The translations under genes and the position numbers were made by a program. From IMG/VR virus record IMGVR_UViG_3300032236_001024, positions 62,001-126,000 of that record: a DNA stretch of 64,000 bases. One strand, given 5' to 3'. This DNA is from a virus. Of the stretch, positions 20,101 to 35,434 are shown in pieces; position 1 is the stretch's first letter, and every line of letters begins with the position of its first letter. The notes below the pieces were generated by a model, which was given only the letters and a program-made list of their open reading frames with translations, was not told the origin of the DNA and did not search any database.

Positions 20101-22896
20101 ACACATGATCTTAAAGTTGACAGTGACTATGTATATTTTGATACACCTGAATTAATTTCTTATTCTATTGGTGGTCGTAATCGTTCTATTGATGGAAAAC
20201 AATTCCAAGTAAAGGGAATACCAGCTTCCAATCAGATAAAAATTATTGCCTATACCAAATCATTAAATGATCGTGTAGCAGTTAGTGCTGGTTCATATAC
20301 TTTTGTTGATACTGCAACTATAACATCATTTAGAAATGTTGATCTTACTAATATTACTACATCTGCGTATGCTTCTATACCTATTGTAACACCAACTTCT
20401 CTTCCTTCAGGAAGCGTAAGATTAACAAATCCAATTTATATTTCAGTAAGTAATAGTTCTTCATTTACTAAAATTACTCCTACATCATTGTTCTTGGGAA
20501 CTCCAGGTTCAAATAACATTACCATCGATAGTTCTGGAACTAAGTTTAATACTAGAGGTTCTTATCTACAGACATTTATCAATGGTAGAGGTATCACCAT
20601 TTCTTCACTACAAGAAGAAGATGGTCAAGTTGTTCCAGAAGCAGATTTGTTCTTTGCTAACTCAAGTGTATTGAGCATTGGCAATTATAATAAATCTTCT
20701 ATAGTTTCTTCTGATATTGTATTCAGCAGCTCACTTAAAGCTGGTACTACAGATACATTCATTTCTTTGACTGGAGATACTTTATCTATATCTGATCAAT
20801 CAGGTATACAAAATACAACTATCACAACATCTTATGCTGATTTTGGTGGTGATCTTTCTGTTGCTGGTTATCTATATCTGAATACTCTTTTTGCTAATAG
20901 CAGCATTGGAACAAGAGGACAAGTTCTTACTTCAAATGGAACTGGCGGAACATATTGGTCATCTCTATCAGGTCTTGTTGGATATACTGGTTCTAGAGGC
21001 ATTCAAGGTATAACTGGTTACTTTGGATCAGTCGGTTATACTGGTTCAATCGGTGCTTCTGGCGTATCTGGATATGGTGGTTCGACTGGTTATACTGGTT
21101 CAGCCGGATATGTTGGTGCTGACGGTTATGCTGGTTCTGTTGGTTATACAGGTTCAGCTGGATATATTGGTAAAGATGGATATTCTGGTTCTGTAGGATA
21201 TACTGGATCATTTGGTTATGATGGTTCAAGAGGTTTCACTGGGTCTAGAGGTTCTGGTTATACAGGTTCCAGAGGATATGACGGGTTTGTTGGTTACACT
21301 GGTTCTATTGGCGCTGGGTATACTGGATCGATTGGTGCTGGTTTTGCTGGTTCAAGAGGAATTATAGGATTTGTTGGTTCACAAGGTATTCCCGGTGAAG
21401 CAGCTGCAATAGGTTATTCTGGATCACAAGGTTATACTGGTTTTATTGGATCATTTGGTTATACTGGTTCACAAGGTATTCCCGGCGAATTTGCTGGCAT
21501 GGGTTATACTGGTTCTCAAGGTGTTATTGGATATACTGGTTCGCTTGGTTACACTGGTTCATTGGGTGGTCTTGGTCCAAGAGGATATACTAGCTCTAGA
21601 GGTTATTCTGGTTCCCTTGGTTATTCTGGCTCACTTGGTTATACTGGTTCACAAGGTATTCCTGGTCAAGCTGCAGATAAAGGTTATGATGGATCGCAGG
21701 GATATACTGGTTATACTGGTTCATTAGGTTATGTTGGATCACAAGGTATTCCAGGTCAAGCTGCAGATAAAGGTTACGATGGTTCAAGAGGATATTTTGG
21801 ATCATATGGATATACTGGTTCTCTTGGCTATACTGGTTCACAAGGATATACTGGTTCTCAAGGTGAAAAGGGTGATCCTGGTGAATATGCTGCCATGGGT
21901 TATGATGGTTCACAAGGTGATATAGGATATACTGGGTCTATTGGTTTTACAGGTTCTCAAGGTATTCCCGGTCAGGCTGCAGATAAAGGATATGCTGGTT
22001 CTCTTGGTTATTCCGGTTCTCTTGGTTATTCTGGCTCACAAGGTATTCCCGGTGAAGCTGCATACAAGGGCTATGATGGTTCACAAGGTTATGATGGATC
22101 AACTGGATTCACTGGTTCCAGAGGAATTGTTGGATTTACTGGCTCTACTGGTGAAAAGGGTGATCCTGGTGAATTTGCTGCATTAGGATTTACAGGTTCA
22201 CAAGGTGATACTGGTGATGTTGGTTATGTTGGATCACAAGGAATTCCCGGCGAATATGCTGCATTAGGATTTACAGGTTCACAAGGTGATCAAGGTCCAC
22301 AAGGTTATTTGGGAGACCCTGGTTATACTGGTTCGCAAGGTGATGCTGGTGAAATTGGTTATACTGGTTCAGCTGGTCTTGGATTTACTGGTGATCAAGG
22401 TGAACTTGGATATACAGGTTCTTCTGGTGCTGGTTTCTCTGGATCAAGAGGTATTATTGGTTTCTCTGGTTCTAGAGGTGTTATTGGTTATGTCGGATCG
22501 GCTGGATATATTGGTCGTGATGGTTATAATGGTTCTCTTGGTTATACTGGTTCAGCTGGATATATTGGTGTTGATGGTTATTCAGGATCAGTAGGTTATA
22601 CAGGTTCAGCTGGTTATATCGGTCTTGATGGTTATGTTGGATCAAGAGGATATACTGGCTCTATTGGGTTCACTGGATCAAAAGGATTTGCTAATGGGCA
22701 ATCATTATCAGTAAATAACTTTGTAATTACTGGTTCAGTAACTGCTGGTAACAGTACTGGAACAAATATGCAGGTTCTTACTACAACTGGTTCTTCAGTT
22801 TATTGGGCAACTCTCAGTGCTGCACTCAATCTCGATGGTGGTGATCCAACATCCAATTATGGTGGAATAACTTCTATAGATGCTGGTGGTGTTTAA
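14107..22896 (+). CDS. Giant collagen-like tail fibre protein (2929 aa)
   Basis: N-terminus FPDNPTVGLTHVAAGRTWRWDGKRW is the shared attachment-type module. A long collagen-like part (about residues 35-1180) begins with a 17-unit GYKGSE array. It carries globular inserts near bases 15300-15670 and 16720-17120, related to those in the 3098-aa fibre. Around residues 1200-1680 the sequence becomes a non-collagen beta repeat (NTLTVSN, NNATVAN), followed by a globular region of about 500 residues without obvious repeats (to about 20980). A second collagen-like block (about residues 2290-2860) follows, with more imperfect triplets such as GSQGIPGEAA, then a short tip. The stalk/beta-fibre/globular/stalk order suggests a long articulated fibre. 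Which end faces the host is not settled by sequence. Confidence 0.87.
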   Translation: MAILFPDNPTVGLTHVAAGRTWRWDGKRWTTIGDVGYKGSEGYQGSEGVRGSVGYTSSVGYTSSVGFQGSTGYRGSEGYKGSEGYKGSEGYKGSEGYKGSEGYKGSEGYKGSEGYKGSEGYKGSEGYKGSEGYKGSEGYKGSEGYKGSEGYKGSEGYKGSEGYKGSEGYKGSEGYKGSEGYQGSVGYTGSAGDVGYKGSEGYRGSEGFRGSVGYTSSVGYTSSVGFQGSEGYKGSEGYKGSEGYQGSEGYQGSLGYQGSSGITGYRGSGGVSGVTGYSGSVGYQGSEGYKGSEGYQGSVGYQGSRGSDGFRGIVGYQGSEGYKGSIGYTGSYGYTGSRGFAGSRGIQGIPGDVGPTGDTGYTGSAGYSGSQGFTGSQGDIGDKGEKGFTGSKGQQGDFGGAAFDYRFTTDTTSSIPASGYLKFNSSTVGDVTSLYINKNDIFANSVYNYLKTIDDSTSSIRGHFTVTERANTHNYNMFTIIGNLQDYQSDGYFVVPVGFVTGVSSGLANFSNNLEVLITFARTGDKGDKGDTGYVGSTGYWGSTGYTGSTGYWGSVGFTGSLGYWGSTGYVGSQGYTGSTGYVGSLGYWGSVGFVGSIGYTGSQGYTGSTGYWGSTGYWGSVGFTGSIGYTGSQGYTGSVGYVGSTGYWGSVGFTGSIGYTGSIGFTGSVGFVGSTGYWGSVGFTGSIGYTGSIGFTGSVGYVGSQGVQGTRGVPGPIGDQGPIGYTGSIGFFDSLGYTGSIGAGYTGSKGYAGSLGYTGSLGYWGSVGFTGSVGFVGSVGYTGSQGIQGVTGYDGSTGYWGSVGFTGSIGYTGSVGAGYTGSTGYWGSVGFAGSLGYTGSIGFTGSVGFVGSVGYVGSQGDLGPQGYIGGSLIFNFTTGSTSSGDPASGYIKFYGGTGSSLSNPSSLTKIMISKTEAKSGSDLTSYLLSLTNYNTSTIKAYVTISDAKNYTKHAIFQISARIPVTYPLGNENTNVTYIQYGIQCIAGSGLSSITSDAEVAVSFSKNGDKGDQGVIGYTGSLGYWGSVGYTGSAGYVGADGYAGSVGYWGSVGYTGSRGVIGLTGYFGSVGYTGSMGPQGVPGNPDGYQGSVGYQGSVGYKGSAGQVGYKGSAGIQGPQGPSGGADGYAGSLGYTGSRGIQGITGYVGSQGYYGSVGYTGSYGDVGYTGSIGYTGSMPSLNGETGQILVNDNNLVNSYAGFTFTYSTNTLTVSNTIVVSNNLTVSNTLLTNKLNVIDSILVGNTVRIFQSLLVSDEIYSSNTITTKNLLASENDLTVGNSATITNTLTVSNTIAVSNTLTVANTLSVANTLTVANTLIVTKSLIASNILTVGNNVTIANTLTVSNNASIANTLTVANTLIVTKSIIASNTLTVSNNATIANTLTVSNNAIVANTLTVSNTISTFNLSVSNNATVANTLTVSNTVVVPILTVGNNAFIANTLTVGNNATVANTLTVANTLTVSNTLIVSNTLTVSNNATVANTLTVANTLIVTKSLIASNTLTVSNNATVANTLTVSNTLIVSNTITANTLTVNTLSVSNNLSVSNSINVGNNLTVSNTAIVSNNLFVYNIISSNIMSVNTITVGNTLIVSNTISSNILSVNTATINALSVSNNASIANTLTVYTVNVSNTLTTKSLIISSNTLSVNTLNSNTISITNSSTFGNNLSVANTLTVGNTLIIDTNLELSKRQVNFSNSQFLYLPSANTGKYTPTSTANGALRYNYEINSVEIYDNVAVKWIKLGASQDDFAALIGSINYLTTQSIYVYNDYDVLSINASAVFAGNSQVNTNITTHGISTSDPNNNTTISSQVVFVGNSSANSAISLYGGDTVLDVSYYSVSTSGIATIQTRNDHGLQGVRGVIGKISDTGFYYIDSLSSFNVTDFATSNTFSFALTSSKTSSNLKIESLERDENGVVTYHTTGQHHYQVGDVINITGISPTLPKGPFNYSGVTVYNTPEANTFSIYDPTKANLVRNLVTISNDYYPSTYSGYVYLTVTFDQTHDLKVDSDYVYFDTPELISYSIGGRNRSIDGKQFQVKGIPASNQIKIIAYTKSLNDRVAVSAGSYTFVDTATITSFRNVDLTNITTSAYASIPIVTPTSLPSGSVRLTNPIYISVSNSSSFTKITPTSLFLGTPGSNNITIDSSGTKFNTRGSYLQTFINGRGITISSLQEEDGQVVPEADLFFANSSVLSIGNYNKSSIVSSDIVFSSSLKAGTTDTFISLTGDTLSISDQSGIQNTTITTSYADFGGDLSVAGYLYLNTLFANSSIGTRGQVLTSNGTGGTYWSSLSGLVGYTGSRGIQGITGYFGSVGYTGSIGASGVSGYGGSTGYTGSAGYVGADGYAGSVGYTGSAGYIGKDGYSGSVGYTGSFGYDGSRGFTGSRGSGYTGSRGYDGFVGYTGSIGAGYTGSIGAGFAGSRGIIGFVGSQGIPGEAAAIGYSGSQGYTGFIGSFGYTGSQGIPGEFAGMGYTGSQGVIGYTGSLGYTGSLGGLGPRGYTSSRGYSGSLGYSGSLGYTGSQGIPGQAADKGYDGSQGYTGYTGSLGYVGSQGIPGQAADKGYDGSRGYFGSYGYTGSLGYTGSQGYTGSQGEKGDPGEYAAMGYDGSQGDIGYTGSIGFTGSQGIPGQAADKGYAGSLGYSGSLGYSGSQGIPGEAAYKGYDGSQGYDGSTGFTGSRGIVGFTGSTGEKGDPGEFAALGFTGSQGDTGDVGYVGSQGIPGEYAALGFTGSQGDQGPQGYLGDPGYTGSQGDAGEIGYTGSAGLGFTGDQGELGYTGSSGAGFSGSRGIIGFSGSRGVIGYVGSAGYIGRDGYNGSLGYTGSAGYIGVDGYSGSVGYTGSAGYIGLDGYVGSRGYTGSIGFTGSKGFANGQSLSVNNFVITGSVTAGNSTGTNMQVLTTTGSSVYWATLSAALNLDGGDPTSNYGGITSIDAGGV
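14338..14643 (+). repeat. 17 tandem 18-bp units encoding GYKGSE
   Basis: Seventeen consecutive in-frame units, each encoding Gly-Tyr-Lys-Gly-Ser-Glu, with mostly silent differences (ggttataaaggttctgaa and close variants). It is the most uniform and most charged repeat in either giant fibre, alternating Lys and Glu in the Y position of successive collagen triplets. Confidence 0.95.
16048..16210 (+). repeat. Exact 73-bp direct duplication, 90-bp period
   Basis: Bases 16048-16120 recur without a mismatch at 16138-16210, inside the GYWGSVGFTGSIGYTGS collagen block. A 90-bp period keeps the 18-bp unit register. Confidence 0.9.
17731..19150 (+). repeat. NTLTVSN-type degenerate beta repeat
   Basis: About 470 residues of the 2929-aa fibre made of short units such as NTLTVSN, NNATVAN, NTLIVTKSL and NTISSN. 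Alternating Thr/Val and Asn turns fit a solenoid or beta-prism shaft. At DNA level the units are degenerate (thirty-six- to thirty-nine-base spacing is common). Confidence 0.85.
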
Positions 22897-22903
22897 TCAT
22901 GAA

Positions 22904-22911
22904 TATAAATA
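22904..22911 (+). promoter_or_regulatory. Perfect T4-type late promoter motif (TATAAATA)
   Basis: TATAAATA in the 42-base gap between two fibre genes, 27 bases before the ATG at 22939. It is an exact match to the T4 late promoter core. Confidence 0.7.
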
Positions 22912-22938: not shown

Positions 22939-25900
22939 ATGGCAATTCAAATACAATTAAGAAGAGGTACTGCAGCACAATGGGCTACTGCTAATACAAT
23001 ATTAGCACTAGCAGAATTAGCCATTGAAATTGATACTTCTTTATTTAAAATTGGTGATGGATTAACACATTGGTCTGATCTTCCATATGGTGGTATTCGT
23101 GGTTTTACTGGTTCACGAGGTGATACTGGATATGTTGGTTCGTATGGGTATACTGGATCAAGAGGATATACAGGATCATTTGGGTATACTGGCTCGCAAG
23201 GTATAACTGGGTATGTTGGATCACAAGGTTATACAGGATCATATGGATATACTGGTTCGCAGGGATATACTGGATCACAAGGTATAACTGGATATGTTGG
23301 TTCACAGGGTTATTCTGGTTCTTATGGTTATACAGGATCACAAGGCTATACAGGTTCGTATGGTCCAATAGCTGGATCAAATACACAAGTTGTATTTAAT
23401 GATAGTGGAATTGCTGGTGGTAGTGCTGGATTAACATTCAATAAAAATAATTATACATTAACTACTAATAGTATCATAGCAAATACATTCTCTGGTACTT
23501 CTAATAATTCAACATATGCATTTGGCAAAACTGAAATTGCATTGAATGTAAACACTTCACTTGTATCAAATAATTCAACATATGCATTCGGTAAAACTGA
23601 AATTGCATTAAACGTAAACACTGCTCTTGTATCAAATAACGCTACTTATGCATTTGGCAAAACAGAATCCAATCTTAACGTAAACAATGCAACAACAGCA
23701 AATAATTCTACTTACGTATATGGCAAAACAGAAATTGCATTAAACGTAAACACTGCTCTTGTATCAAATAACGCTACTTATGCATTTGGCAAAACAGAAT
23801 CAAATCTAAATGTAAATAATGCTACTTATGCATTTGGCAAAACAGAATCAAATCTAAATGTAAATAATGCTACTTATGCATTTGGCAAAACAGAATCCAA
23901 TCTTAATGTTAACAATGCAGTTACAGCAAATAACTCAACATATGCATTTGGTAAAAGTGAAATAAATCTTAATGTTAATAATTCTCTTACTTCAAATAAT
24001 ACAACATATTTGAATGGACAACTTTCATCATATTACACAAATGCTTCAAATATTTCTACTGGCACATTGGGAGCATCTAGACTTCCATATGCAATGAATC
24101 AGGGCGTTTCTACTACTAGTTCTGTAACATTTGCAAATGTCTCAATAACTGGTGGTACTGTGGCAACAACTCCACAATATAGCACAGATATTGTTAATAA
24201 ACAATACGCAGATGCTATTGCTACGGGTATTAATTTTCACCCATCTGTTAGATTAACAACAACACAAACTTTTGATAGTTCTACTGCAACATATTATAAT
24301 GGTGCAAATGGTGTAGGAGCTACTATCACTGATAATTCTCCATATATTGCTTTATCATTAGATGGCGTAACTGCAGCATATGGTGATCGTATACTTATGC
24401 GTGGTTCAAGCAATTCTGTTTGGAATGGAATTTATACAGTATCTAATACTGGTTCTGGTTCTTATCCTTGGATTATGACAAGATCATATGATTACGATCA
24501 AGTTGGTACTGGTACAAATGAAATTGATCAAGGTGATTTGATATATGTGACGGCTGGTTCTACTTTAGCTGGAACTTCTTGGGTACAACAAGAATCGGTA
24601 AATACAATTGGTACTGATGCAATATCATTTGTACAATTTAGTTCTAAAGCCCTTTTTGCATTATCATCTGGTTCTGGACTATATTATAGTGCTGGTGGTG
24701 CATTTGATGGTTCTGCAGCATCTACACTTGCAGTAAATACTTCATATATTGGAACACTAACTGCTAACAATGCAACATATGCATTTGGTAAAACAGAATC
24801 CAATCTTAACGTAAACAATTCGACATATGCATTTGGCAAAACAGAATCTAATCTTAATGTAAATAATGCTACTTATGCATTTGGTAAAACAGAATCTACA
24901 TTAAGTGTTAATAATGCATTATATTTAAATGGTGTTGCAGCTTCTTATTATGTAAATACTTCTGCTTCATATACTATCACTGGTATTCATACACACAATG
25001 CTAATATTGTACTTGGAAGTATTGGTATATCTGCTAATGGTTCTTATGGAACTGACACACAAGTATTGAAAGCCAATTCTACTGGTGGTGTTTTTTGGGG
25101 AACTGGTGTTTCTGGTTATACTGGTTCACAAGGAAATCTTGGTTATACAGGATCATATGGATATACTGGTTCACAGGGTTATGCTGGCTCTACTGGTTAT
25201 GTTGGGTCTCAAGGTAATTTAGGTTATGCTGGTTCTACTGGTTTTGTCGGATCAACTGGTTATGTCGGATCACAAGGATATGCTGGATCAACTGGTTATG
25301 TTGGATCACAAGGATATGCTGGATCAACTGGTTATGTCGGTTCTCAAGGATATGCTGGATCAACTGGTTATGTTGGATCAACTGGTTATGTTGGATCACA
25401 AGGATATGCTGGTTCTACTGGTTATGTTGGATCAACTGGTTATGTTGGATCACAAGGATATGCTGGTTCTACTGGTTATGTTGGATCAACTGGTTATGTT
25501 GGATCACAAGGATATGCTGGATCAACTGGTTATGTCGGTTCTCAAGGATATGCTGGTTCTACTGGTTATTTCGGATCAACAGGATATGTAGGTTCATCTG
25601 GAACTAATGGTTATTCCGGATCAGTTGGTTATGTAGGTTCATCTGGTTCAGTTGGTTATGTAGGTTCAGCTGGAACTAATGGTTATACTGGATCAGTTGG
25701 TTATGTAGGTTCAGCTGGAACTAATGGTTATACTGGATCAGTTGGTTATGTAGGTTCATCTGGTTCAGTTGGTTATGTAGGTTCAGCTGGAACTAATGGT
25801 TATACTGGATCAGTAGGTTATGTTGGTTCAGCTGGTTCAAATGGCTATTCTGGATCAGTTGGTTATTTTGGTTCAACTGGTTATACAGGTTCGTCTGGAT

Positions 25901-26211
25901 CAGTTGGATATATTGGTTCAGTAGGTTATGTTGGTTCAGCTAGTACTGTTATTGGTTATACTGGATCAGCTGGTTCTGGCGGTTCTGGTGGTTCTTGGAC
26001 TGGTGGAACTATGTCCAATACAGTCTATTTTTCCAACACAGCCGCATCAACTAATAACGTATCTGGTGCAGTTACTGTTCTTGGTGGTCTTGGTGTGAAT
26101 GGTAATATATATACTGCAAGTCGTGTTGGATTTGCTAACTCAGGTAATACTGGTGTAGCATATACATATTATAATGAAGTTTTGAACTCAATTGATACGG
26201 TATTTGGTTAA
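22939..26211 (+). CDS. Collagen-like tail fibre with Mtd-type N-terminal domain (1090 aa)
   Basis: The N-terminal 55 residues (MAIQIQLRRGTAAQWATAN ... FKIGDGLTHWSDLPY) match the N-terminal domain of the phage major tropism determinant (Mtd_N), seen at the base of many phage fibres. Then come a short collagen-like run, a 16-residue repeat region (YAFGKTESNLNVNNAT; bases about 23505-23990), and a beta domain of a common phage fibre type (DRILMRGSSNSVWNGIYTVS, bases about 24220-24650). More FGKTE units, a long GSTGYVGSQGYA collagen-like stalk (25110-25990) and a short tip ending in SIDTVFG follow. The last codons overlap the LamG gene (TTAATGG), so the pair is probably co-translated as a stalk plus lectin head. 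Confidence 0.86.
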   Translation: MAIQIQLRRGTAAQWATANTILALAELAIEIDTSLFKIGDGLTHWSDLPYGGIRGFTGSRGDTGYVGSYGYTGSRGYTGSFGYTGSQGITGYVGSQGYTGSYGYTGSQGYTGSQGITGYVGSQGYSGSYGYTGSQGYTGSYGPIAGSNTQVVFNDSGIAGGSAGLTFNKNNYTLTTNSIIANTFSGTSNNSTYAFGKTEIALNVNTSLVSNNSTYAFGKTEIALNVNTALVSNNATYAFGKTESNLNVNNATTANNSTYVYGKTEIALNVNTALVSNNATYAFGKTESNLNVNNATYAFGKTESNLNVNNATYAFGKTESNLNVNNAVTANNSTYAFGKSEINLNVNNSLTSNNTTYLNGQLSSYYTNASNISTGTLGASRLPYAMNQGVSTTSSVTFANVSITGGTVATTPQYSTDIVNKQYADAIATGINFHPSVRLTTTQTFDSSTATYYNGANGVGATITDNSPYIALSLDGVTAAYGDRILMRGSSNSVWNGIYTVSNTGSGSYPWIMTRSYDYDQVGTGTNEIDQGDLIYVTAGSTLAGTSWVQQESVNTIGTDAISFVQFSSKALFALSSGSGLYYSAGGAFDGSAASTLAVNTSYIGTLTANNATYAFGKTESNLNVNNSTYAFGKTESNLNVNNATYAFGKTESTLSVNNALYLNGVAASYYVNTSASYTITGIHTHNANIVLGSIGISANGSYGTDTQVLKANSTGGVFWGTGVSGYTGSQGNLGYTGSYGYTGSQGYAGSTGYVGSQGNLGYAGSTGFVGSTGYVGSQGYAGSTGYVGSQGYAGSTGYVGSQGYAGSTGYVGSTGYVGSQGYAGSTGYVGSTGYVGSQGYAGSTGYVGSTGYVGSQGYAGSTGYVGSQGYAGSTGYFGSTGYVGSSGTNGYSGSVGYVGSSGSVGYVGSAGTNGYTGSVGYVGSAGTNGYTGSVGYVGSSGSVGYVGSAGTNGYTGSVGYVGSAGSNGYSGSVGYFGSTGYTGSSGSVGYIGSVGYVGSASTVIGYTGSAGSGGSGGSWTGGTMSNTVYFSNTAASTNNVSGAVTVLGGLGVNGNIYTASRVGFANSGNTGVAYTYYNEVLNSIDTVFG
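23505..23990 (+). repeat. 48-bp FGKTE/LNVN repeat block
   Basis: About ten copies of a 48-bp unit encoding NATYAFGKTESNLNVN or variants, some adjacent copies almost identical in DNA (for example around 23814-23909). Three more copies lie at about 24765-24920 in the same gene. Confidence 0.85.
25411..25518 (+). repeat. Two exact tandem 54-bp units in collagen stalk
   Basis: Bases 25411-25464 are repeated exactly at 25465-25518, encoding GSTGYVGSTGYVGSQGYA twice. Flanking sequence from about 25255 to 25600 is made of the same 18-bp building blocks. Confidence 0.9.
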
Positions 26212-29200
26212 TGGCAGTAGCATCTAGATTAGATTCAGTTGGTAATTTCACGGTAGCCAATACAGGTATATTGGATGAAATATCATCATCTGATCCTAAT
26301 CAGTATAGTGTATACTCTACTAGCAGCAATAATAGTTATCTTTCTATATCAAGTGCGTCTGTTCCTGCAACTGGACCATTCACAATTGAAGCATGGATAT
26401 ACACAACAGTTTCAGCTACTCAAACAATATACAGCCAATATCTACAAAGTGGTGATGCTAATAGATGGCATTTTTCTATAGATAATAATACTGGATATAA
26501 ATTATCTTTTTCTCATGGTACAGCAGCAACAGCTTGGGGAAGCACAGTAGTTCCATTAAATCAGTGGAATCACGTTGCAGTAACAAGAGATTCTAGTAAT
26601 AATCTAAGATTTTTCTTAAATGGCGTATTAGATGGAACAACAGCATCGTATACTGCTACTCTCAGTCAGAATGCTCCAAGAATAAGTGGATTTCTTAATA
26701 CTGGTGTTAGCCAGTATAATTTTCAAGGATATATTTCTAATTTTCGTATTGTCAGTGGAACAGCTGTATATACTAATTCATTTATACCATCAAAAGCACC
26801 ATTAACAGCAATACCTAGTACAGTATTACTTACTTGTCAATCATCTACTTTTATTGATAACTCATCATCAGCAAAAACAATAACTAATGCTGGTCTAGTA
26901 ACTACATACCTACCACCACAATCAGATTTCTATGCTGCATCCTTTAATGGTAGTTCTCAATATATTTCTATACCTAATGCAGCTGGTGTAGCAAGTTATG
27001 CTAGTGATTTTACTGTAGAATTTTGGATGTATCCAACAGCTTTAGTATCTGGCACATATGGATTAGCTGGTCAATATAGACTTTCTAATGGTAGGTCTTG
27101 GTTAATAACTGTTGGCTCAAATGGATATATTCAAGTAAGTAATGGCACAACAGCATCAGGTAGTTATGTTGGCGCAGCTGTAGTTGGTGCATGGACGCAT
27201 GTTGCATGGGTTCGAAGTGGATCAATTTGGTATCTTTATATCAATGGTATTCAACAGAGCAGTCCTGCTTCAAATGGAACCCCTGCAGCAAGTACTGAAA
27301 ATATTATTATTGGAGCAAATGGTGATGCTGCAAGTCCTACTTGGTTTTTCCCTGGTTATATTTCAAACTTCCGTATTGTAAAGGGTACAGCATTATATAC
27401 TGGTGCTTTTAAACCAGATATTAATTTTACACCTGTATCTGGTACATCTGTTCTTACATTACAAAATTCTTCATTAGTAGATAACTCAACTAATATATAC
27501 ACAATAACTAACAGCACTAGTGTTACGTCATCGCTTATAAGATCACCAAATTTTCTTACAACTGCATCACAACAATCTTTTGATGGCAATCATAAAGTAG
27601 GTGGTATATATGATGAGGTAACTATTACACCGTCTAATCAATATGCTACTTCTTTTAGTGGTAGTAGTCAATACATATCAGTTCCATCTGGCCCTTTTGT
27701 AATAGGAACAAGTAATTTTACTGCTGAATGTTGGATAAATTCAAACAATTTAGCATCAAATCCAGTATTCATAGATAACTGGGCTCTTGCATCTGGTAAC
27801 TTAACAGGTCAATGGCAATTAACAGCTAATGCTACTACAATAACTTTTTGGTATGGAACTGGAACTAATACTCAATCATCTGTATCTGGTTCATTTGCTT
27901 TTTCTGCAAATACCTGGTATCACGTAGCAGCTGTCAGAGAAGGAACAGGTACAAATCAATTTAAAATATATGTAAATGGTAATGTTGTTGCAACAGGAAC
28001 TATATCAGCAAGTTTAGGTGTTAGTGTTGCTGGTAGTATTGGTAGACAAACATCTAATCAATTTTTTATGGGTGGTTATATTTCTAATGTTCGTGTAGTT
28101 ATAGGAACTGCAGTATACACTCGAAACTTTATACCTCCGGTTGCACCATTAGCTGCTGTACCTGGAACAACTTTGCTTACCTGTCAAAATGCAACCACAG
28201 TTGATAACTCATTTTATGCATACTCACTTACAAATAATAGTACGACAGTTTATAATCCGCCATACCCAACTTTTTATGCTACATCGTTTAGTGGTTCTGG
28301 ACAATACCTTGATACTCCTAGTAGTGCAACGCTAACACTAGGAACTGGTGATTTTACTATTGAATCATGGGTATATTGGAAAGGTGGAGCAAATAGAATA
28401 GTAGGTGGTAGTGGTACTAATGATACTGTTTTCAACGTTGTTATGGACGTTGCAAATGATGGCAGCTTTAATTTTGGTGGATGGACAACAGGTACAAAAT
28501 CTACCCTCAAGATTACACAAAATACATGGAATCATTTTGCTTGGACTAGAGTAGGAACAACAGAAAGATTCTTTGTTAATGGTGTGTTGAGTGATACAGT
28601 GACTCGTAGTTTTAATTTCAGTGCAACTACTTCTGTTGGTATAGGACACATAACAAATACAAATGGTCTTTGGAATGGTTATATCTCAAATCTCCGTATT
28701 GTTAAAGGTTTATCATTATATAACTCTGCTTTTACTCCATCTCAAACAAATCTAACAGCTGTAACAGGAACAGTACTGCTCACATGTCAAAATGCAACGA
28801 TTATCGATAACTCAACTAATGCATTTACTATAACAAATACTGGAACCGTGACCGTTCTTCCTGCTGCTCCATTTACTTCTGTCAGACAGCAATACTCTTC
28901 TGGCGACTATCTTGTTAGTGGAGTATTTGATGAAGTTACAGCTATAAATGAATCTTATAGTGCATCGTTTAATGGTAGTAGTCAGTATCTTTCTTTTACA
29001 GGAACTTCTTCTGTACAACTGTCAGGTAGTCCTTTTACTGTTGAATGTTGGATTAACTTAACTGGATATTCAGCAGGATATGGTCCTTCTTCTAACGTGT
29101 ATGCTGGTGCTCTTTTCTGGAATGATTATGCAGGCGGCGGTAATGGTTTTGAATTAGTACTAGCAGGTACATCATCATCTTGGACAAGTATATATTTTTA

Positions 29201-30242
29201 TTCAAAATCATCTGGCGCCCAAACAAATAATATATTAAAATCTTATGCGTTTTCGTTAAATACTTGGTATCATGTTGCTGTTGTTTCTAATGGTTCTACT
29301 CTTACATTCTATGTAAATGGTACATCAATTGGTTCTGGTGCGATAACAACTTGGACGGATACAACAACATATGCTATTGGTGGCGGTGGTAACTCGCCAT
29401 ATGGTTATTATTTTCCTGGATATATGTCAAATTTTCGAGTTGTAAAAGGTATTGCTGTTTATACTGGTAATTTTAATCCTCCACAATCACATCTAACAGC
29501 TGTTCCTGGAACTTCGCTTCTAACTTGTCAGTCAAGCACATTGGTAGACAATTCAACAAATGCATTTACAATAACTAATAATGGTTCAGTAACAACATAT
29601 AAACCACCATATTCACCATTTTATGCTGCATCGTTTAATGGTAGCAGTCAGTATTTAAGAGTTGCAAGTAATGCTGCCTTTTCTATGGGAACTGGTGATT
29701 TTACTTTTGAATTTTGGATTTATCCAACATCATTTGCTACCGCTTCGTTTCCATTAGACCTAAGAGGTGGCGTAACATTAAATCCAGCTCCATTATTTTA
29801 TATGGACACTACTGGAGCTATGGTTTTGGGCATACCCAATGGTGCAACAACTGCATATCCAGCGTCTGTACCATCGCTCACTTTAAATGCTTGGAATCAT
29901 GTTGCTTGGGTAAGAGCATCCGGATTTACATCTGCGTATTTAAATGGTGTTTATTCCAATGGTAGTGCAGATACTAACACATACGGACAATATGGTGTTA
30001 GTATTGGAGCCACAGGTGGTTCTGCTGTAAATTTATTTCCTGGATATATATCAAATCTTCGTATAGTAAAAGGCGTTGCTGTTTATACTTCAGCATTTAC
30101 ACCTCCCACTAGTCAATTGACAGCAATATCTGGTACATCATTACTTACTTGTCAATCTAGTACGTTAATTGATAATTCAACCAATGGATTTACTATAACA
30201 AATACAGGATCAGTATCAACAGTTCCTCGTGAACCGTTCTAA
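26211..30242 (+). CDS. Six-module LamG/concanavalin-A-like lectin protein (1343 aa)
   Basis: After a short N-terminal segment the protein contains about six consecutive modules of ~205 residues (near bases 26290, 26925, 27630, 28275, 28960 and 29625). Each module runs SFNGSSQYL, then (F)T(I/V/F)E.W(I/V)(Y/N), then WNHVAW.R, then a YISN(F/L)RIVKG(T)AVYT motif, and ends LLTCQSST..DNSTN.FTITN. This is the LamG/laminin-G-like (concanavalin A-like lectin/glucanase) jelly-roll pattern common in phage and bacterial adhesins, which usually binds carbohydrate. No glycosidase active site was recognised. The start overlaps the preceding collagen-stalk gene. Inferred role: multivalent binding of host surface polysaccharide. 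Confidence 0.85.
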   Translation: MAVASRLDSVGNFTVANTGILDEISSSDPNQYSVYSTSSNNSYLSISSASVPATGPFTIEAWIYTTVSATQTIYSQYLQSGDANRWHFSIDNNTGYKLSFSHGTAATAWGSTVVPLNQWNHVAVTRDSSNNLRFFLNGVLDGTTASYTATLSQNAPRISGFLNTGVSQYNFQGYISNFRIVSGTAVYTNSFIPSKAPLTAIPSTVLLTCQSSTFIDNSSSAKTITNAGLVTTYLPPQSDFYAASFNGSSQYISIPNAAGVASYASDFTVEFWMYPTALVSGTYGLAGQYRLSNGRSWLITVGSNGYIQVSNGTTASGSYVGAAVVGAWTHVAWVRSGSIWYLYINGIQQSSPASNGTPAASTENIIIGANGDAASPTWFFPGYISNFRIVKGTALYTGAFKPDINFTPVSGTSVLTLQNSSLVDNSTNIYTITNSTSVTSSLIRSPNFLTTASQQSFDGNHKVGGIYDEVTITPSNQYATSFSGSSQYISVPSGPFVIGTSNFTAECWINSNNLASNPVFIDNWALASGNLTGQWQLTANATTITFWYGTGTNTQSSVSGSFAFSANTWYHVAAVREGTGTNQFKIYVNGNVVATGTISASLGVSVAGSIGRQTSNQFFMGGYISNVRVVIGTAVYTRNFIPPVAPLAAVPGTTLLTCQNATTVDNSFYAYSLTNNSTTVYNPPYPTFYATSFSGSGQYLDTPSSATLTLGTGDFTIESWVYWKGGANRIVGGSGTNDTVFNVVMDVANDGSFNFGGWTTGTKSTLKITQNTWNHFAWTRVGTTERFFVNGVLSDTVTRSFNFSATTSVGIGHITNTNGLWNGYISNLRIVKGLSLYNSAFTPSQTNLTAVTGTVLLTCQNATIIDNSTNAFTITNTGTVTVLPAAPFTSVRQQYSSGDYLVSGVFDEVTAINESYSASFNGSSQYLSFTGTSSVQLSGSPFTVECWINLTGYSAGYGPSSNVYAGALFWNDYAGGGNGFELVLAGTSSSWTSIYFYSKSSGAQTNNILKSYAFSLNTWYHVAVVSNGSTLTFYVNGTSIGSGAITTWTDTTTYAIGGGGNSPYGYYFPGYMSNFRVVKGIAVYTGNFNPPQSHLTAVPGTSLLTCQSSTLVDNSTNAFTITNNGSVTTYKPPYSPFYAASFNGSSQYLRVASNAAFSMGTGDFTFEFWIYPTSFATASFPLDLRGGVTLNPAPLFYMDTTGAMVLGIPNGATTAYPASVPSLTLNAWNHVAWVRASGFTSAYLNGVYSNGSADTNTYGQYGVSIGATGGSAVNLFPGYISNLRIVKGVAVYTSAFTPPTSQLTAISGTSLLTCQSSTLIDNSTNGFTITNTGSVSTVPREPF

Positions 30243-30248
30243 TAAATA
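30242..30248 (+). promoter_or_regulatory. Late promoter-like motif (ATAAATA)
   Basis: TAATAAATAGA directly at the stop of the six-module LamG gene, 23 bases before the ATG of the next stalk gene. Confidence 0.6.
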
Positions 30249-30271
30249 GATAAAAGCAAACAGGATTAACA

Positions 30272-30904
30272 ATGGCAAAGCTTCAAGGTGGCACAAGAAT
30301 ATATGGTACAGCTAACGTAGATTCAAATCTCTACGTAACTAGCACAGTCAATGCTGCATCATTTACTATTGGTTCAAACTTTACTGCAAATACTACTAGA
30401 TTGGGAATAGGTGTTCCTATTCTAGCTAACAATGCTATTGGTACAGCTGGACAAGTTTTAACATCAAATTCTACTGGTGGACTATATTGGTATATTGGTC
30501 CAACTGGTTATTCTGGTTCTGTTGGATATGTAGGATCGACAGGATATGTAGGATCGGTTGGTTATTTTGGTTCTGTTGGATATGTAGGATCGACAGGATA
30601 TGTAGGATCAGTAGGTTATGTAGGCTCTGCAAGTACTGTAATAGGATATACTGGTTCTCCTGGTACTGGCGGTGGTGGTTCTGGTAACGGATATACTGGT
30701 TCAGCTGGATATACTGGTTCAGCAGCAGGACCAATTGGATATACTGGTTCTCCTGGTAGCGGTGGTTCTGGTGGTGGTTTCTCCAATGGTCAATCAATTG
30801 CAGTTGCAAATCTAGCGTTTACAAATTCTACATCTAGTAGTACAGGAATAGCGTATATGTTTGTTAACACAGTTTCTTATAGTATTGATACGGTTTTTGT
30901 ATAA
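30272..30904 (+). CDS. Short collagen-like stalk protein (210 aa)
   Basis: N-terminus MAKLQGGTRIYGTANVDSNL is related to the starts of the 34689 and 35435 products. A small beta segment (VLTSNSTGGLYWY) is followed by a collagen-like run (GYSGSVGYVGS, about residues 80-175). A short tip ends SIDTVFV, matching the C-terminus of the 1090-aa protein (SIDTVFG). The last codons overlap the next LamG gene (ATAATGG). It repeats, in miniature, the stalk-plus-LamG arrangement at 22939-30242. Confidence 0.83.
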   Translation: MAKLQGGTRIYGTANVDSNLYVTSTVNAASFTIGSNFTANTTRLGIGVPILANNAIGTAGQVLTSNSTGGLYWYIGPTGYSGSVGYVGSTGYVGSVGYFGSVGYVGSTGYVGSVGYVGSASTVIGYTGSPGTGGGGSGNGYTGSAGYTGSAAGPIGYTGSPGSGGSGGGFSNGQSIAVANLAFTNSTSSSTGIAYMFVNTVSYSIDTVFV

Positions 30905-33900
30905 TGGCTAACACAGTAAGTAAAGTAGCAAATACTGGTATAATGTATACCAAAGGTGAAATTGATGAATTGTCAATTAATCCAAATGCTCAAGGTAGTA
31001 TATCATTTAATGGTAGTAGTCAATATTTAAGTTTACCAGCTAGTAGTGCTTTTGCTTTTGGTACTGGCGATTTTACTATTGAGTGTTGGGTTAATCCAAC
31101 AACAGCTCCAATTTCAACACCCGTAGCATCAACAGTTAAAGCAATATATGGTTATAGAAATGGCGCTGATACGCTTCCATATTTATATTGGGCGTTTACA
31201 GGTGGCGTTTCATTTGCTGGAGATATAACGACATATTTAGCTTCTAACGTACAATTAACTTTAAATGTTTGGACGCATATTGCTGTTGTTCGTATAGGCA
31301 CAGCAATGAATATGTATATCAATGGAACTTCTGTTGCTTCTAACTCAAGTGTAACACAAAATTTTAGCGATTCAGCAAATGTTAGATATGTTGGATTTTT
31401 TAATGGTACAAATGGTTATTATTGGCCAGGAAATATTTCAAATTTACGTATTGTCAATGGCGTAGGTGTATACACTGGAGCCTTTACTCCTCCTACACAA
31501 CAATTGCAAAAATTACAACTTGCAGGAACAAACATTGCTGCTCTTACCAATTCTGCAAATACATCGTTATTATTGAATACATTATATAATAATGCATTTA
31601 TTGATTCAAGTGATAATAATTTTACAGTTGCTAATACAGCTTCACCAACATCAACACCACAACAACCATTTAATCCTGATGGTAATTATTCATATAATAC
31701 AAATACATCTAGTACTACATCTGGTGCATATATAACTGCTCCAGCGAATGTAAACTATGCATTTGGTACTGGCGATTTTACTGTTGAAGCTTGGGTTTAT
31801 ATAACAACTGCAGCTGGTTCATCAGCTTTTTTTGGACCTTGGACAGGAACAGCTTCAACTAGTGCATGGGTTTTTACACAAGGCGCTACTGCAACAAATC
31901 TTAGGTTTGGTGTTTCAAATGGATCAGCAACTACGTTTGTTGAAGGTACTGGTGGTTTAACATCAATAAACAAATGGATTCATATTGCAGCAGTAAGAAT
32001 AAGCGGAAACATAGTATTATATTCAGATGGTGTTTCAGTTTATTCTGGAGCATTATCGCAAAATATATCTGTATCTTCACAGGTATTACAAATTAATGGT
32101 ATTAATGGCTTAACATTTTTAACAACTGGATATATTTCCAATGTAAGAGTTGTTAAAGGTGTAGGTGTATACACTGGAACCTTTACTCCACCAACTACAC
32201 CATTAAGAGCAATACAATCAGCTGGAGCAAATATTGCTGCTATCACAGGAAATACAACAGTATTTACAAGTTTGCTTACTTGTCAATCAAAAACTTTAAA
32301 AGATAATGGCGCTAATAACGTTACGTTATCTGTTCCATCAACAATAAAACCAGTTCTATATTCGAATACAATACCATTTTCTAATGTATCTTTTGCAAAT
32401 AGTGGTTTGCCTGTAAGTAAACATTATAGCAACGGGGCATTACAAATAGTTGGTTCATTAGATGAAGTATCATTGAATACAAACATGGCTGGTAGTGTTA
32501 GTTTCAATGGTACAACTCAATATTTGGTTCTGCCATTGAACGAAGCATTTAATATTGGCACTGGTGATTTTACTTTTGATGCTTGGATAATGCCAACAAA
32601 TGCTACTATTCCACAGTGGGCGTGTATTTTTGGTGGTGTTAACTATGGTTCATCTTCAGATTATGTGTTTCAAGCTGGTTCTGGTCCCAACGTTGGTAAT
32701 TATCCGTATGCGAATTTTACTAACTCACAGGCAGATAATATAAATTCTTCTGTTGCATTAGTGCCATTTAAATGGCAGCATATAGCTTTAAGTCGTAAAT
32801 CTGGCGTCACAGCTATGTTTATTGATGGGGTTTTAACTGGAACTTATTATAACCCAAATAATTCTATGAACAATACTTTACAAAAGGGTATTGGTGGTGG
32901 ATATAATGGTAACGTCAATACATTGTTCCCTGGGTATATTTCTAATGTTCGTCTAGTTAAAGGATTAGCAGTTTATTCTGGTATATGGAATTCGCCAACT
33001 ACAGCATTAACAACAACGAGTCAAAATGCTACTGCTGCTCAGGTAAGTTTATTAACAGCTCAGTCAGCAACTATTGTTGATAATTCTACTAATGCATTTA
33101 CCATTACTAACAATAATACAGTTACAAGCGGCAATTCAATAATACCATTTGCTAGCACATATAGTTATCAGTTTAATGGAACTAGTCAATACTTAACTGT
33201 TCCTAATAATGCAGCATTTCAATTTGGTACAGGTGAATTTACCGTAGAATGCTGGGTTTATCCAACAGCAGCTGCTGATGCTGCAATATATTCTAAAAGA
33301 GCAACAAGTTCTATTTATGCTGGCGTCAGTGTACACACCACAGCAGCGGGATTTTTTGCTGTATTTTTAGCAAATGCTGGTGGTACTGCTTGGACAATTA
33401 GTAATACTACAGTTTCAGCTTATTCTATTAATACTTGGTATCATATTGTAGTAACGAAAAAAACTACATTATATGGTTCACATATTTATTTTTATGTTAA
33501 TGGTTCTCTTAAATATAGAGGCACTATGAATACTGGTGCATCAGTTGCAATTTTTGATGATGCTGCTGCAGTAGCAATTGGAGCAGGTTCATCAACAACG
33601 CCATCATTTTATTTTCCAGGTTATATATCAAATCTTCGTGTTGTTAAAGGTACTGCGTTATATCAGAACCAAACTATATTTACTCCGCCATCTAGATCAT
33701 TAGACACAACACAACAAGCAAGTGCAAATATTGCAGCTATTACTAATAAATCTCAAGTTAGTTTGTTATTAGAAACAGCAAAACTTAATTATATTGATAC
33801 AAGCTTGTATAGTCATGCAATAACAAAAGGTGGAACACCTCCTTCATCTGTACAAAGTCCATTTTTAACAAATCCAAGTGGTTATTTTAGTAATTTATTT

Positions 33901-34662
33901 AATGGAACATCACAGTATCTTTCTGTTCCAAACGGTGCTGTGTCTAGTTTAGGAACAGCAACTGATTTCACTTTAGAAGCTTGGATATATCCAACTACAT
34001 TAACACCTGGTGGAGGTGGATTATCTAACGGAGTTGCTTTGTTTGGTGCATATGGTGCAACAGGAACTATTACGGGATTTTCTTTTTTCTTTTTAAATAC
34101 TGGTGCTTTATACTTTAGCTCTTATGTTGCTGGCACACAACAAGCTTTGCAAGCTACAAATAATTTTGTTACAACTAATAGTTGGCAGCATGTAGCAATC
34201 ACACGTTCAGGATCAACATATAGAATGTTTGTGAATGGTGTATCTGTAACATTTACAGGTTCAATAACACAATCACTGGATACTACTAATCCAGTTAATA
34301 TTGGCGGATTAGTATATACTACATATTATGATTATTTTACTGGATATATTTCTAACGCTCGTATTGTAAAAGGTACAGCTGTCTACACATCAAACTTTAC
34401 ACCTTCTACATCACCATTAACAGCAATAACTAATACATATCTTCTAACTTGTCAATCTGCTATAGTAACAAGAGATAACTCAACTAACGTATTTACAATA
34501 ACAAATACTGGAACAGTAACAGCAATTGATAATTTTACCCCATTTACTGCTTTGGCTAATACTGCACCAACAATTACATCTGGTACAACATTAAGAAAAC
34601 AATATGATAGTGGTAATATACAAATTATTAACCAATTCGATGAATCAACAGGAACAGCATAA
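30904..34662 (+). CDS. Five-module LamG/concanavalin-A-like lectin protein (1252 aa)
   Basis: Paralogue of the 26211 protein with about five ~220-residue modules (near bases 30985, 31680, 32490, 33165 and 33880). It shows the same landmarks: SFNGSSQYLS, GTGDFT(I/V)E.WV, W.HIAVVR, YISNLRVVKG and T.LLT.QS. The N-terminal lead (TGIMYTKGEIDEL) resembles the equivalent region of the paralogue (TGILDEI). It probably binds surface glycan; the partner is the short stalk upstream. Modules differ enough to suggest different ligands or escape from recombination. Confidence 0.84.
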   Translation: MANTVSKVANTGIMYTKGEIDELSINPNAQGSISFNGSSQYLSLPASSAFAFGTGDFTIECWVNPTTAPISTPVASTVKAIYGYRNGADTLPYLYWAFTGGVSFAGDITTYLASNVQLTLNVWTHIAVVRIGTAMNMYINGTSVASNSSVTQNFSDSANVRYVGFFNGTNGYYWPGNISNLRIVNGVGVYTGAFTPPTQQLQKLQLAGTNIAALTNSANTSLLLNTLYNNAFIDSSDNNFTVANTASPTSTPQQPFNPDGNYSYNTNTSSTTSGAYITAPANVNYAFGTGDFTVEAWVYITTAAGSSAFFGPWTGTASTSAWVFTQGATATNLRFGVSNGSATTFVEGTGGLTSINKWIHIAAVRISGNIVLYSDGVSVYSGALSQNISVSSQVLQINGINGLTFLTTGYISNVRVVKGVGVYTGTFTPPTTPLRAIQSAGANIAAITGNTTVFTSLLTCQSKTLKDNGANNVTLSVPSTIKPVLYSNTIPFSNVSFANSGLPVSKHYSNGALQIVGSLDEVSLNTNMAGSVSFNGTTQYLVLPLNEAFNIGTGDFTFDAWIMPTNATIPQWACIFGGVNYGSSSDYVFQAGSGPNVGNYPYANFTNSQADNINSSVALVPFKWQHIALSRKSGVTAMFIDGVLTGTYYNPNNSMNNTLQKGIGGGYNGNVNTLFPGYISNVRLVKGLAVYSGIWNSPTTALTTTSQNATAAQVSLLTAQSATIVDNSTNAFTITNNNTVTSGNSIIPFASTYSYQFNGTSQYLTVPNNAAFQFGTGEFTVECWVYPTAAADAAIYSKRATSSIYAGVSVHTTAAGFFAVFLANAGGTAWTISNTTVSAYSINTWYHIVVTKKTTLYGSHIYFYVNGSLKYRGTMNTGASVAIFDDAAAVAIGAGSSTTPSFYFPGYISNLRVVKGTALYQNQTIFTPPSRSLDTTQQASANIAAITNKSQVSLLLETAKLNYIDTSLYSHAITKGGTPPSSVQSPFLTNPSGYFSNLFNGTSQYLSVPNGAVSSLGTATDFTLEAWIYPTTLTPGGGGLSNGVALFGAYGATGTITGFSFFFLNTGALYFSSYVAGTQQALQATNNFVTTNSWQHVAITRSGSTYRMFVNGVSVTFTGSITQSLDTTNPVNIGGLVYTTYYDYFTGYISNARIVKGTAVYTSNFTPSTSPLTAITNTYLLTCQSAIVTRDNSTNVFTITNTGTVTAIDNFTPFTALANTAPTITSGTTLRKQYDSGNIQIINQFDESTGTA

Positions 34663-34688: not shown

Positions 34689-35432
34689 ATGGCAAAATTA
34701 CTTGGTGGTTCTAGAGTTTACGGTTCGTTGACAGTTGACGGTGCAATTATTGCAGGCGTGGGTGGTGGTGGGTTTCAAAATATGGTTGTGTTTACAACTG
34801 GAACGAGTGCGACATATACCTTTCCTACTGCTCTTCAAACTCCTGGAGCAAGATTTAAAGTAACTGTAATTGGTGGTGGTGGTCAAGGTGGTGGAACTTC
34901 AACCACTGCGGGAATGACTGGGGCTGGAGGAGGTTCTGGGGCTTTAATTGCTGTCATATTAACTGTCGTTTCTGGTCAATATACATTAACATATACTGTT
35001 GGTTCAGGCGGTGCTGGCGCTGGTACAAATTCTACAGGAACTCCTGGTGGCGCTTCCAGCATTACATATAATTCATTAACATATACAGCAGGTGGTGGGG
35101 ATGGTGGTCCTACAGCTACAGCAGGTAATTATGGTTTTGGTGGTACTGTTACAGGGCAAATTACATCAACTACTACTAACGCATTAGTTTTAACAGGTGG
35201 TCAGAGTAGTTATTCAGGAACTTCTGCTGCTGTTAGTCCTATTAATGCGAAAGGAGCCGATACTCCATTAGGCTATGGATTTGGTGGCCCAATGCATGGA
35301 GTTAATACTGGTGCAGCTGGTGTAGCGGCATCTGGATATGGTGCAGGAGGTTCTGGCGCAAAAAATGGTAGCGGTACAGTTGCATATGCTGGTGGTAATG
35401 GTACTGGTGGCATCATTATTTTTGAGTATTAA
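34689..35432 (+). CDS. Glycine-rich phage adhesin-like protein
   Basis: 247 aa. N-terminus MAKLLGGSRVYGSLTVDG is the MAKLxGG module shared with 30272 and, more loosely, 35435. Then a beta domain (TYTFPTALQTPGARFKVTVIG) leads into long Gly-rich runs (GGGGQGGG, AGGGSG, GGAGAG) ending GGIIIFEY. This plan (TFP....RFKV...GGGGGGG ... (G)IIIFEY) is common in phage tail fibre tip and adhesin proteins with a glycine-rich receptor-binding domain. The next gene is a paralogue. Confidence 0.78.
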   Translation: MAKLLGGSRVYGSLTVDGAIIAGVGGGGFQNMVVFTTGTSATYTFPTALQTPGARFKVTVIGGGGQGGGTSTTAGMTGAGGGSGALIAVILTVVSGQYTLTYTVGSGGAGAGTNSTGTPGGASSITYNSLTYTAGGGDGGPTATAGNYGFGGTVTGQITSTTTNALVLTGGQSSYSGTSAAVSPINAKGADTPLGYGFGGPMHGVNTGAAGVAASGYGAGGSGAKNGSGTVAYAGGNGTGGIIIFEY

Positions 35433-35434
35433 AA

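What the first reader, a model, noticed from the sequence alone, without database searches (positions are those of the whole stretch)
22939..34662. Duplicated stalk-plus-lectin cassette
The pair 22939/26211 (collagen stalk then LamG protein) is repeated as 30272/30904. In both pairs the stalk ends SIDTVF(G/V), the stop overlaps the LamG start, and the LamG proteins share module landmarks. The second stalk has been shortened to 210 aa or the first expanded to 1090 aa. This looks like a gene-pair duplication giving two independently evolving adhesin complexes.
Basis: partly seen in the sequence, partly recalled or inferred. Interest (0 to 1): 0.6.

Follow-up and report, generated by a model that had tools for sequence, protein, structure and literature searches.

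The report
Phage fibres with three-point lectin caps
Two neighbouring gene pairs in a large T4-like phage each encode a collagen-like tail fibre and, overlapping it by one base, a long lectin protein; both belong to a widespread, unannotated arrangement in which every fibre ends in the same short tail and nearly every partner carries three copies of one short motif, as if one adhesin chain clips onto the three chains of the fibre tip.

Summary
Two stalk+LamG pairs lie in tandem; both stalks end SIDTVF(G/V) and both stops overlap the LamG start (TAATG). The duplication reading is only partly right: stalk 2 has a different N-terminus, each stalk tip and LamG protein has nearer relatives in other viruses, and the 11 LamG modules interleave with those of other viruses. 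No recent tandem copy is seen; an old one is not excluded.

The real find is the junction. In IMG/VR, a search for YYNx5(L/I)DTVF that asked for no stop codon gave 66 distinct hits; 65 have exactly one residue after DTVF, then stop. The next gene usually starts -1 to +2 nt away and carries a ~19-aa motif (RLxSxGxLxVxGxFDEV): three copies in 50 of 62 complete partners, never more, while length runs 72-1901 aa and LamG count 0-8. The smallest partners (72-75 aa) are just the three motifs. Of 78 proteins with two or more motifs, 77 follow a fibre ending DTVFx or a close variant.

Best reading: a C-terminal docking peptide on a trimeric fibre and a three-repeat adapter that mounts one exchangeable adhesin chain per tip. 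It would work like S16 gp37/gp38 but without detectable homology. Docking itself is inferred; AlphaFold was uninformative.

The parts
22905..22911 (+). ATAAATA late-promoter-like site of cassette 1
   Evidence: 34 nt upstream of stalk 1; of 9 plus-strand sites between 9 and 39 kb, 7 lie 26-40 nt before a gene start, none before a LamG gene
22939..26211 (+). Stalk 1, 1090 aa: Mtd_N N-terminus, two collagen-like stretches, conserved tip
   Evidence: Pfam Mtd_N 7e-11, Collagen 5e-51
25048..25098 (+). Pre-collagen motif GTDTQVLKANSTGGVFW, alignable with stalk 2
   Evidence: local alignment score 94 against a shuffle maximum of 68
26194..26208 (+). C-terminal peptide DTVFG of stalk 1
   Evidence: DTVF invariant and strictly C-terminal in relatives
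26209..26213 (+). TAATG: stalk 1 stop overlapping LamG1 start
   Evidence: sequence
26211..30242 (+). LamG1, 1343 aa: three adapter motifs and 6 Laminin_G_3 modules
26223..26285 (+). Adapter motif 1 of LamG1 (aa 5-25)
27567..27623 (+). Adapter motif 2 of LamG1 (aa 453-471)
   Evidence: below the level of the independent profile search
28887..28940 (+). Adapter motif 3 of LamG1 (aa 893-910)
26325..30071 (+). Six Laminin_G_3 modules of LamG1: 26325-26756, 26946-27383, 27660-28097, 28293-28706, 28971-29444, 29637-30071
   Evidence: all over the curated cut-off
30242..30248 (+). ATAAATA late-promoter-like site of cassette 2
   Evidence: 30 nt upstream of stalk 2
30272..30904 (+). Stalk 2, 210 aa: MAKLQGGTRIYGTANVD N-terminus, short collagen-like stretch, conserved tip
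30272..30322 (+). MAKL-type N-terminal module of stalk 2; in relatives this module opens the gene after the adapter
   Evidence: 28 of 28 readable downstream genes
30440..30490 (+). Pre-collagen motif GTAGQVLTSNSTGGLYW of stalk 2
30887..30901 (+). C-terminal peptide DTVFV of stalk 2
30902..30906 (+). TAATG: stalk 2 stop overlapping LamG2 start
30904..34662 (+). LamG2, 1252 aa: three adapter motifs and 5 Laminin_G_3 modules
30919..30975 (+). Adapter motif 1 of LamG2 (aa 6-24)
32416..32472 (+). Adapter motif 2 of LamG2 (aa 505-523)
34597..34644 (+). Adapter motif 3 of LamG2 (aa 1232-1247)
31009..34371 (+). Five Laminin_G_3 modules of LamG2: 31009-31461, 31720-32157, 32506-32958, 33175-33648, 33901-34371
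   Evidence: all over the curated cut-off

Best explanation
Each pair encodes a trimeric tail fibre and its tip adhesin. The collagen-like stalk forms a homotrimer (inferred from the collagen repeats) that ends in three identical C-terminal peptides ...YYN-x5-(I/L)DTVFx-COOH. The overlapping downstream gene makes an adapter-adhesin with three short repeats (RLxSxGxLxVxGxFDEV) separated by exchangeable cargo, here 11 LamG lectin-like modules in the two proteins together. The three repeats fold back together and each engages one of the three fibre chains, so one asymmetric adhesin chain caps one trimer and displays the LamG modules as loops towards the host surface. The overlap and shared promoter keep the two proteins made together. 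Shown by sequence: near-invariant, strictly C-terminal peptide, tight gene coupling, three repeats whatever the cargo, exclusive association of the two parts. Inferred: trimer state, physical docking, 3:1 stoichiometry, glycan binding, position in the virion.
For: Strict C-terminus: 65 of 66 distinct hits have exactly one residue after DTVF although no stop was asked for; the other is an unrelated protein. D, T, V, F and the N seven residues upstream of that D are invariant in 72 distinct tips (DTVF was part of the selection). Start of the next gene: -1 nt in 49, +1 in 19, +2 in 4 of 80. Three motifs: 50 of 62 complete partners have 3, none more, against 0-1 chance hits in reversed and shuffled controls; in 33 clusters at 50% identity, 22 have three and 9 two; most 'two' cases show a weaker third by eye. 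Count does not follow length or LamG number. Minimal partners are the motifs alone. Reciprocal: 77 of 78 proteins with two or more motifs follow a fibre ending DTVFx, DTIFx or DVVFx (also 55). A profile built without window sequences finds, in the whole 202-kb genome, five of the six motifs in LamG1 and LamG2; its only other hit crosses a stop. Cargo occupies every slot and is exchanged. In the pairs with LamG cargo, fibre tip similarity tracks adapter similarity (Mantel r 0.53) more than cargo similarity (0.23). Precedent: one S16 gp38 chain caps a gp37 trimer through three tryptophans set at 120 degrees (PMC6851490).
Against: No structure or interaction was shown. About a fifth of the complete partners (12 of 62) show fewer than three motifs above threshold, and three long ones (L139, L246, L252) cannot be brought to three by eye. 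The motif model was trained on the same partners, except for the tests. Relatedness explains part of the constancy of three. Gene adjacency alone could give the Mantel correlation.
Confidence: 0.6

Rival explanations
1. Recent gene-pair duplication: cassette 2 is a copy of cassette 1, with the stalk shortened or the other one lengthened.
For: Same order, same tip motif, same overlap, homologous LamG modules, co-linear GQVL-collagen-tip part.
Against: Different N-termini; each tip and LamG protein has nearer relatives elsewhere; modules interleave with other viruses'; longest shared exact DNA 20 nt; the MAKL start of stalk 2 is what normally follows an adapter.
Confidence: 0.12
2. The downstream protein is a fibre-assembly chaperone (like T4 gp38 or Tfa) that acts on the fibre C-terminus and leaves; LamG modules are passengers.
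For: Position after the fibre gene, tight coupling, and 72-75 aa minimal partners without any cargo. T4 gp38 is such a released chaperone (PMC12892980).
Against: Many partners carry up to 8 lectin-like modules or Gly-rich cargo in every slot, which suits a displayed adhesin; LamG modules are exchanged between viruses.
Confidence: 0.17
3. The three motifs are only inherited linker repeats between cargo domains, with no link to fibre symmetry; the partner attaches by its N-terminus or elsewhere.
For: All partners may descend from one three-repeat ancestor; in the window the motifs sit between LamG groups like linkers.
Against: The minimal partners consist of the motifs alone; cargo can sit in any slot or none without changing the count; the motifs occur only after DTVFx-type fibres.
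Confidence: 0.18
4. The TAATG junction is a programmed frameshift or restart that makes a fused fibre-lectin protein.
For: Conserved sequence at the junction.
Against: The gap varies (-1, +1, +2 and more) with several stop-start spellings, so the frame relation is not conserved; no fused form in 65 occurrences; no canonical slippery heptamer by inspection.
Confidence: 0.02

Closest known systems
T2/S16-type long tail fibre tip: gp37 trimer capped by the gp38 adhesin (PDB 6F45; Pfam GP38 PF05268)
   Same: Adhesin encoded directly after the fibre gene, one variable adhesin per fibre tip, three equivalent contacts matching a trimer, Gly-rich cargo in some members
   Different: No sequence match to gp38 or to any solved structure; motifs look beta-like (GxLxVxGxFDEV) instead of three helices with tryptophans; motifs are spread along the chain with cargo between them; fibre tip peptide DTVFx; often LamG cargo, sometimes a collagen shaft
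Laminin_G_3 (PF13385) proteins of cyanophages and other marine phages
   Same: Same lectin-like module in tandem in tail proteins; widely present in isolates (313 phage records)
   Different: In the four isolates checked the LamG proteins have no adapter motif and no DTVFx fibre before them
Tail-fibre chaperones (T4 gp38, Tfa)
   Same: Small gene next to the fibre gene, acts at the fibre C-terminus
   Different: Partners here often carry large binding cargo and no known chaperone domain
Synechococcus phage S-SRM01 genes QPX48296/QPX48297
   Same: Fibre ends NSLDFIFI, one-base overlap, partner with three motif-like stretches (two above threshold) followed by cargo
   Different: Diverged tip and motifs; annotated hypothetical; the only isolate found

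Membership tests
gp38 tip adhesin of T2/S16-type phages (PF05268) | Sequence similarity to GP38 | tested here: not met
   No GP38 hit in LamG1 or LamG2 or in 14 minimal partners; only chance-level PDB matches
gp38 tip adhesin of T2/S16-type phages (PF05268) | Three tryptophan-tipped helices that contact the fibre | tested here: not met
   The 14 minimal partners contain no tryptophan
gp38 tip adhesin of T2/S16-type phages (PF05268) | Gene directly downstream of the distal fibre gene | tested here: met
   -1 to +2 nt in 72 of 80 pairs
gp38 tip adhesin of T2/S16-type phages (PF05268) | One adhesin chain on a fibre trimer | not testable with these tools
   Suggested only by three motifs per chain
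Laminin_G_3 domain proteins (PF13385) | Modules above Pfam's curated cut-off | tested here: met
   11 modules, 55-82 bits against a cut-off of 27.6
Collagen-like phage fibres (PF01391) | Collagen triplet repeats | tested here: met
   Stalk 1 clearly; stalk 2 has about 21 triplets but scores 25.1 bits, under the 27.2 cut-off
T4-like myovirus (host genome of the window) | Homologous major head protein and tail sheath | tested here: met
   Head protein 69% identical to Stenotrophomonas phage DLP6; tail sheath, NrdA
Recent tandem gene duplicate | The two copies are each other's nearest relatives | tested here: not met
   Tips, LamG proteins and modules have nearer relatives elsewhere
Tail-fibre chaperone (T4 gp38 or Tfa) | Absent from the finished virion | not testable with these tools
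   No proteomics for these phages

The most novel reading that the evidence does not exclude
A so far undescribed fibre-tip mounting system: a strictly C-terminal peptide on the trimeric fibre and a three-repeat adapter, unrelated in sequence to gp38, that converts threefold symmetry into one exchangeable adhesin chain, spread through many mostly uncultivated phages. It would be an independent solution to the trimer-to-monomer problem and a modular platform on which lectin domains are exchanged in nature.
Probability: 0.55. Interest if true: 0.75.

Novelty: new variant of a known kind. Interest (0 to 1): 0.62.

Why it matters
Tail fibres decide which bacteria a phage infects, and in metagenomes the part that touches the host is hard to recognise. 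A fibre ending DTVFx followed by a three-motif protein gives a simple sequence handle that names the distal tip and its adhesin in many uncultivated phages, mostly unannotated so far. If the docking is real, it is a second way, besides gp38, to mount one asymmetric adhesin on a threefold fibre, and it explains how lectin modules can be swapped freely while the connection stays intact.

Tried and rejected
AlphaFold2 on the minimal adapter (14 and 34 sequences): pLDDT 44 and 52, two strands suggested per repeat, not usable. That the fibre tip and the adapter motif are the same repeat: scores no better than shuffled tips. Frameshift fusion: rejected, see rivals. Adapter in bacterial genomes: 56 pattern matches, none confirmed. 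Adapter in isolate phages by tblastn: no match with the first tip and adapter queries, a further one only chance-level; one weak full-length match (E 5) proved to be the same arrangement in S-SRM01, with no further isolate from it; a 69-aa capsid control query works. The tip query may have been partly masked by the low-complexity filter, so absence from isolates is not proven. 150 kb of DLP6, nearest by capsid: no adapter. PDB search with the fibre tip profile: nothing. PHROGs and Pfam for the minimal adapter: no family. Literature searches found no description of this arrangement in the open-access library; subscription papers and preprints were not searched.

Full report
What is there. The window is part of a 202,141-base virus contig of a T4-like myovirus: its major head protein is 69% identical to that of Stenotrophomonas phage DLP6, with T4-type tail sheath and NrdA. 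Inside a long run of tail-fibre genes lie two tandem pairs: stalk 1 / LamG1 (22939-26211 / 26211-30242) and stalk 2 / LamG2 (30272-30904 / 30904-34662). Both stalks end SIDTVF plus one residue and both junctions are TAATG. LamG1 has 6 and LamG2 5 Laminin_G_3 modules. ATAAATA sites resembling T4 late promoters stand 26-40 nt before seven structural genes of the region, both stalks included, but not before the LamG genes, so each pair looks like one transcription unit.

Is it a duplication? The stalks align only over their distal part: a GQVLxxNSTGGxxW motif, collagen and the tip. Stalk 1 starts with a Mtd_N domain, stalk 2 with MAKLQGGTRIYGTANVD, also seen at gene 34689 and in other viruses. 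The stalk-1 tip is closer to 65 other viral tips than to stalk 2; stalk 2's nearest is L138. LamG2 is closest to L180 (44.6% identity) rather than LamG1 (31.9%). In a tree of 87 modules the two proteins' modules are scattered among other viruses', and LamG2's last module is nearly identical to one of L180. The DNA of the two cassettes shares at most 20 exact bases in a row. So the pairs are members of one family, but not a recent copy of one another; a mosaic origin fits better. In relatives the gene after the adapter began MA(K/Q)L... in 28 of 28 readable cases, so the N-terminus of stalk 2 sits where such a gene is expected, and its tip plus LamG2 may have been joined to it.

The wider pattern. 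Searching IMG/VR for the junction gave 95 stretches, most of them real fibre/partner junctions by inspection of tip and partner N-terminus. To avoid that bias, the tip motif was searched without stop or overlap: 66 distinct hits, of which 65 end exactly one residue after DTVF and one is an unrelated protein. Of 80 pairs from a broader rule, the partner starts at -1 nt in 49, +1 in 19 and +2 in 4; the last residue is G in 53, L in 15, V in 6.

The partner. Partners share a ~19-aa motif. A profile counts three copies in 50 of 62 complete partners, two in 10, one in 1, none in 1, and never more than three; reversed and shuffled controls give none or one. Most of the 'two' cases have a weaker third copy on inspection. 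After clustering at 50% identity, 22 of 33 clusters have three. Length (72-1901 aa) and LamG count (0-8) vary freely. The 72-75 aa forms are three motifs and little else; in the others cargo sits before, between or after the motifs, and nine patterns of empty and filled slots occur in all. The reverse test holds: of 78 distinct proteins with two or more motifs in all fetched loci, 72 follow a DTVFx fibre, 5 a DTIFx or DVVFx fibre, and one lies at a contig edge; loci found with the partner alone give the same picture. A profile made only from other viruses picks out, in the whole 202-kb genome, five of the six motifs in LamG1 and LamG2, plus one weak hit that crosses a stop codon. Shafts vary too: collagen in the window, ANAAF-type repeats in L180, almost none in L075. 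So the tip and the three motifs are the conserved core, and shaft and cargo are exchangeable.

Mechanism. The collagen repeats imply a trimeric stalk. A strictly C-terminal peptide in the fibre, a partner with three equivalent motifs, and their exclusive association point to a trimer-to-monomer cap. A solved precedent exists: one S16 gp38 chain caps the gp37 trimer through three tryptophans that enter three symmetry-related pockets (PMC6851490). The present parts are not members of that family: no GP38 match, no PDB match above chance, no tryptophans. The claim is therefore 'works like', not 'is'. Tip and adapter similarity are correlated (Mantel r 0.46 over all pairs, 0.53 in those with LamG), tip and cargo less so (0.23), as expected if the contact is conserved and the cargo exchanged, though adjacency alone could contribute. 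AlphaFold2 on the adapter alone was not informative.

Known or new. LamG modules in phage tail proteins are well known and the tip-adhesin principle is known. The DTVFx tip has no PDB match and the three-motif adapter matches no PHROG, Pfam or PDB entry above chance, and I found no paper on them. One cultured phage, Synechococcus S-SRM01, has a diverged version annotated as hypothetical: fibre ending NSLDFIFI, one-base overlap, partner with three motif-like stretches, two of them above threshold. I therefore file it as a new variant of a known kind, with a fair chance that it is an independent docking system.

Limits. IMG/VR contigs are fragments and many are near-duplicates; counts are of distinct sequences, not independent events. 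The motif profile was trained on the partners it counts, except. Trimer state, docking, stoichiometry and ligand binding are inferred.

Noticed in passing
L041, L042, L047-L050, L056: Other phage LamG proteins follow a different ~110-120 aa gene, often ending in ELS or EIS, with the same one-base overlap; possibly a second, separate LamG mounting system.
   Followed up: no
L075:3168-5969: A MAKLQDGTRIYG N-terminus fused directly to LamG and Gly-rich cargo, with no DTVF tip and no adapter: covalent display as an alternative, next to a DTVFG/adapter pair.
   Followed up: partly
L044:6071-22903: A 5610-aa predicted phage protein with 25 LamG modules by the local profile.
   Followed up: no
L180:13-1125: Fibre shaft made of ANAAFGNANATLVVASAAF repeats instead of collagen, ending in the same DTVFG tip.
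   Followed up: no
window 34689-36142: Two tandem MAKL-type genes with Gly_rich_2 domains directly after LamG2.
   Followed up: partly
window 14107-22896: 2929-aa fibre protein with GYKGSE collagen-like repeats and a long NTLTVSNTLTVANNATI repeat shaft.
   Followed up: no
L125:1126-3528 (contig 167126-169528): Three tandem paralogous genes starting (M)NTVITHFYNEEY, glycosyltransferase-like by eye.
   Followed up: no
window 9605-38854: Plus-strand ATAAATA sites sit 26-40 nt before seven structural genes; a candidate late promoter for this phage.
   Followed up: partly
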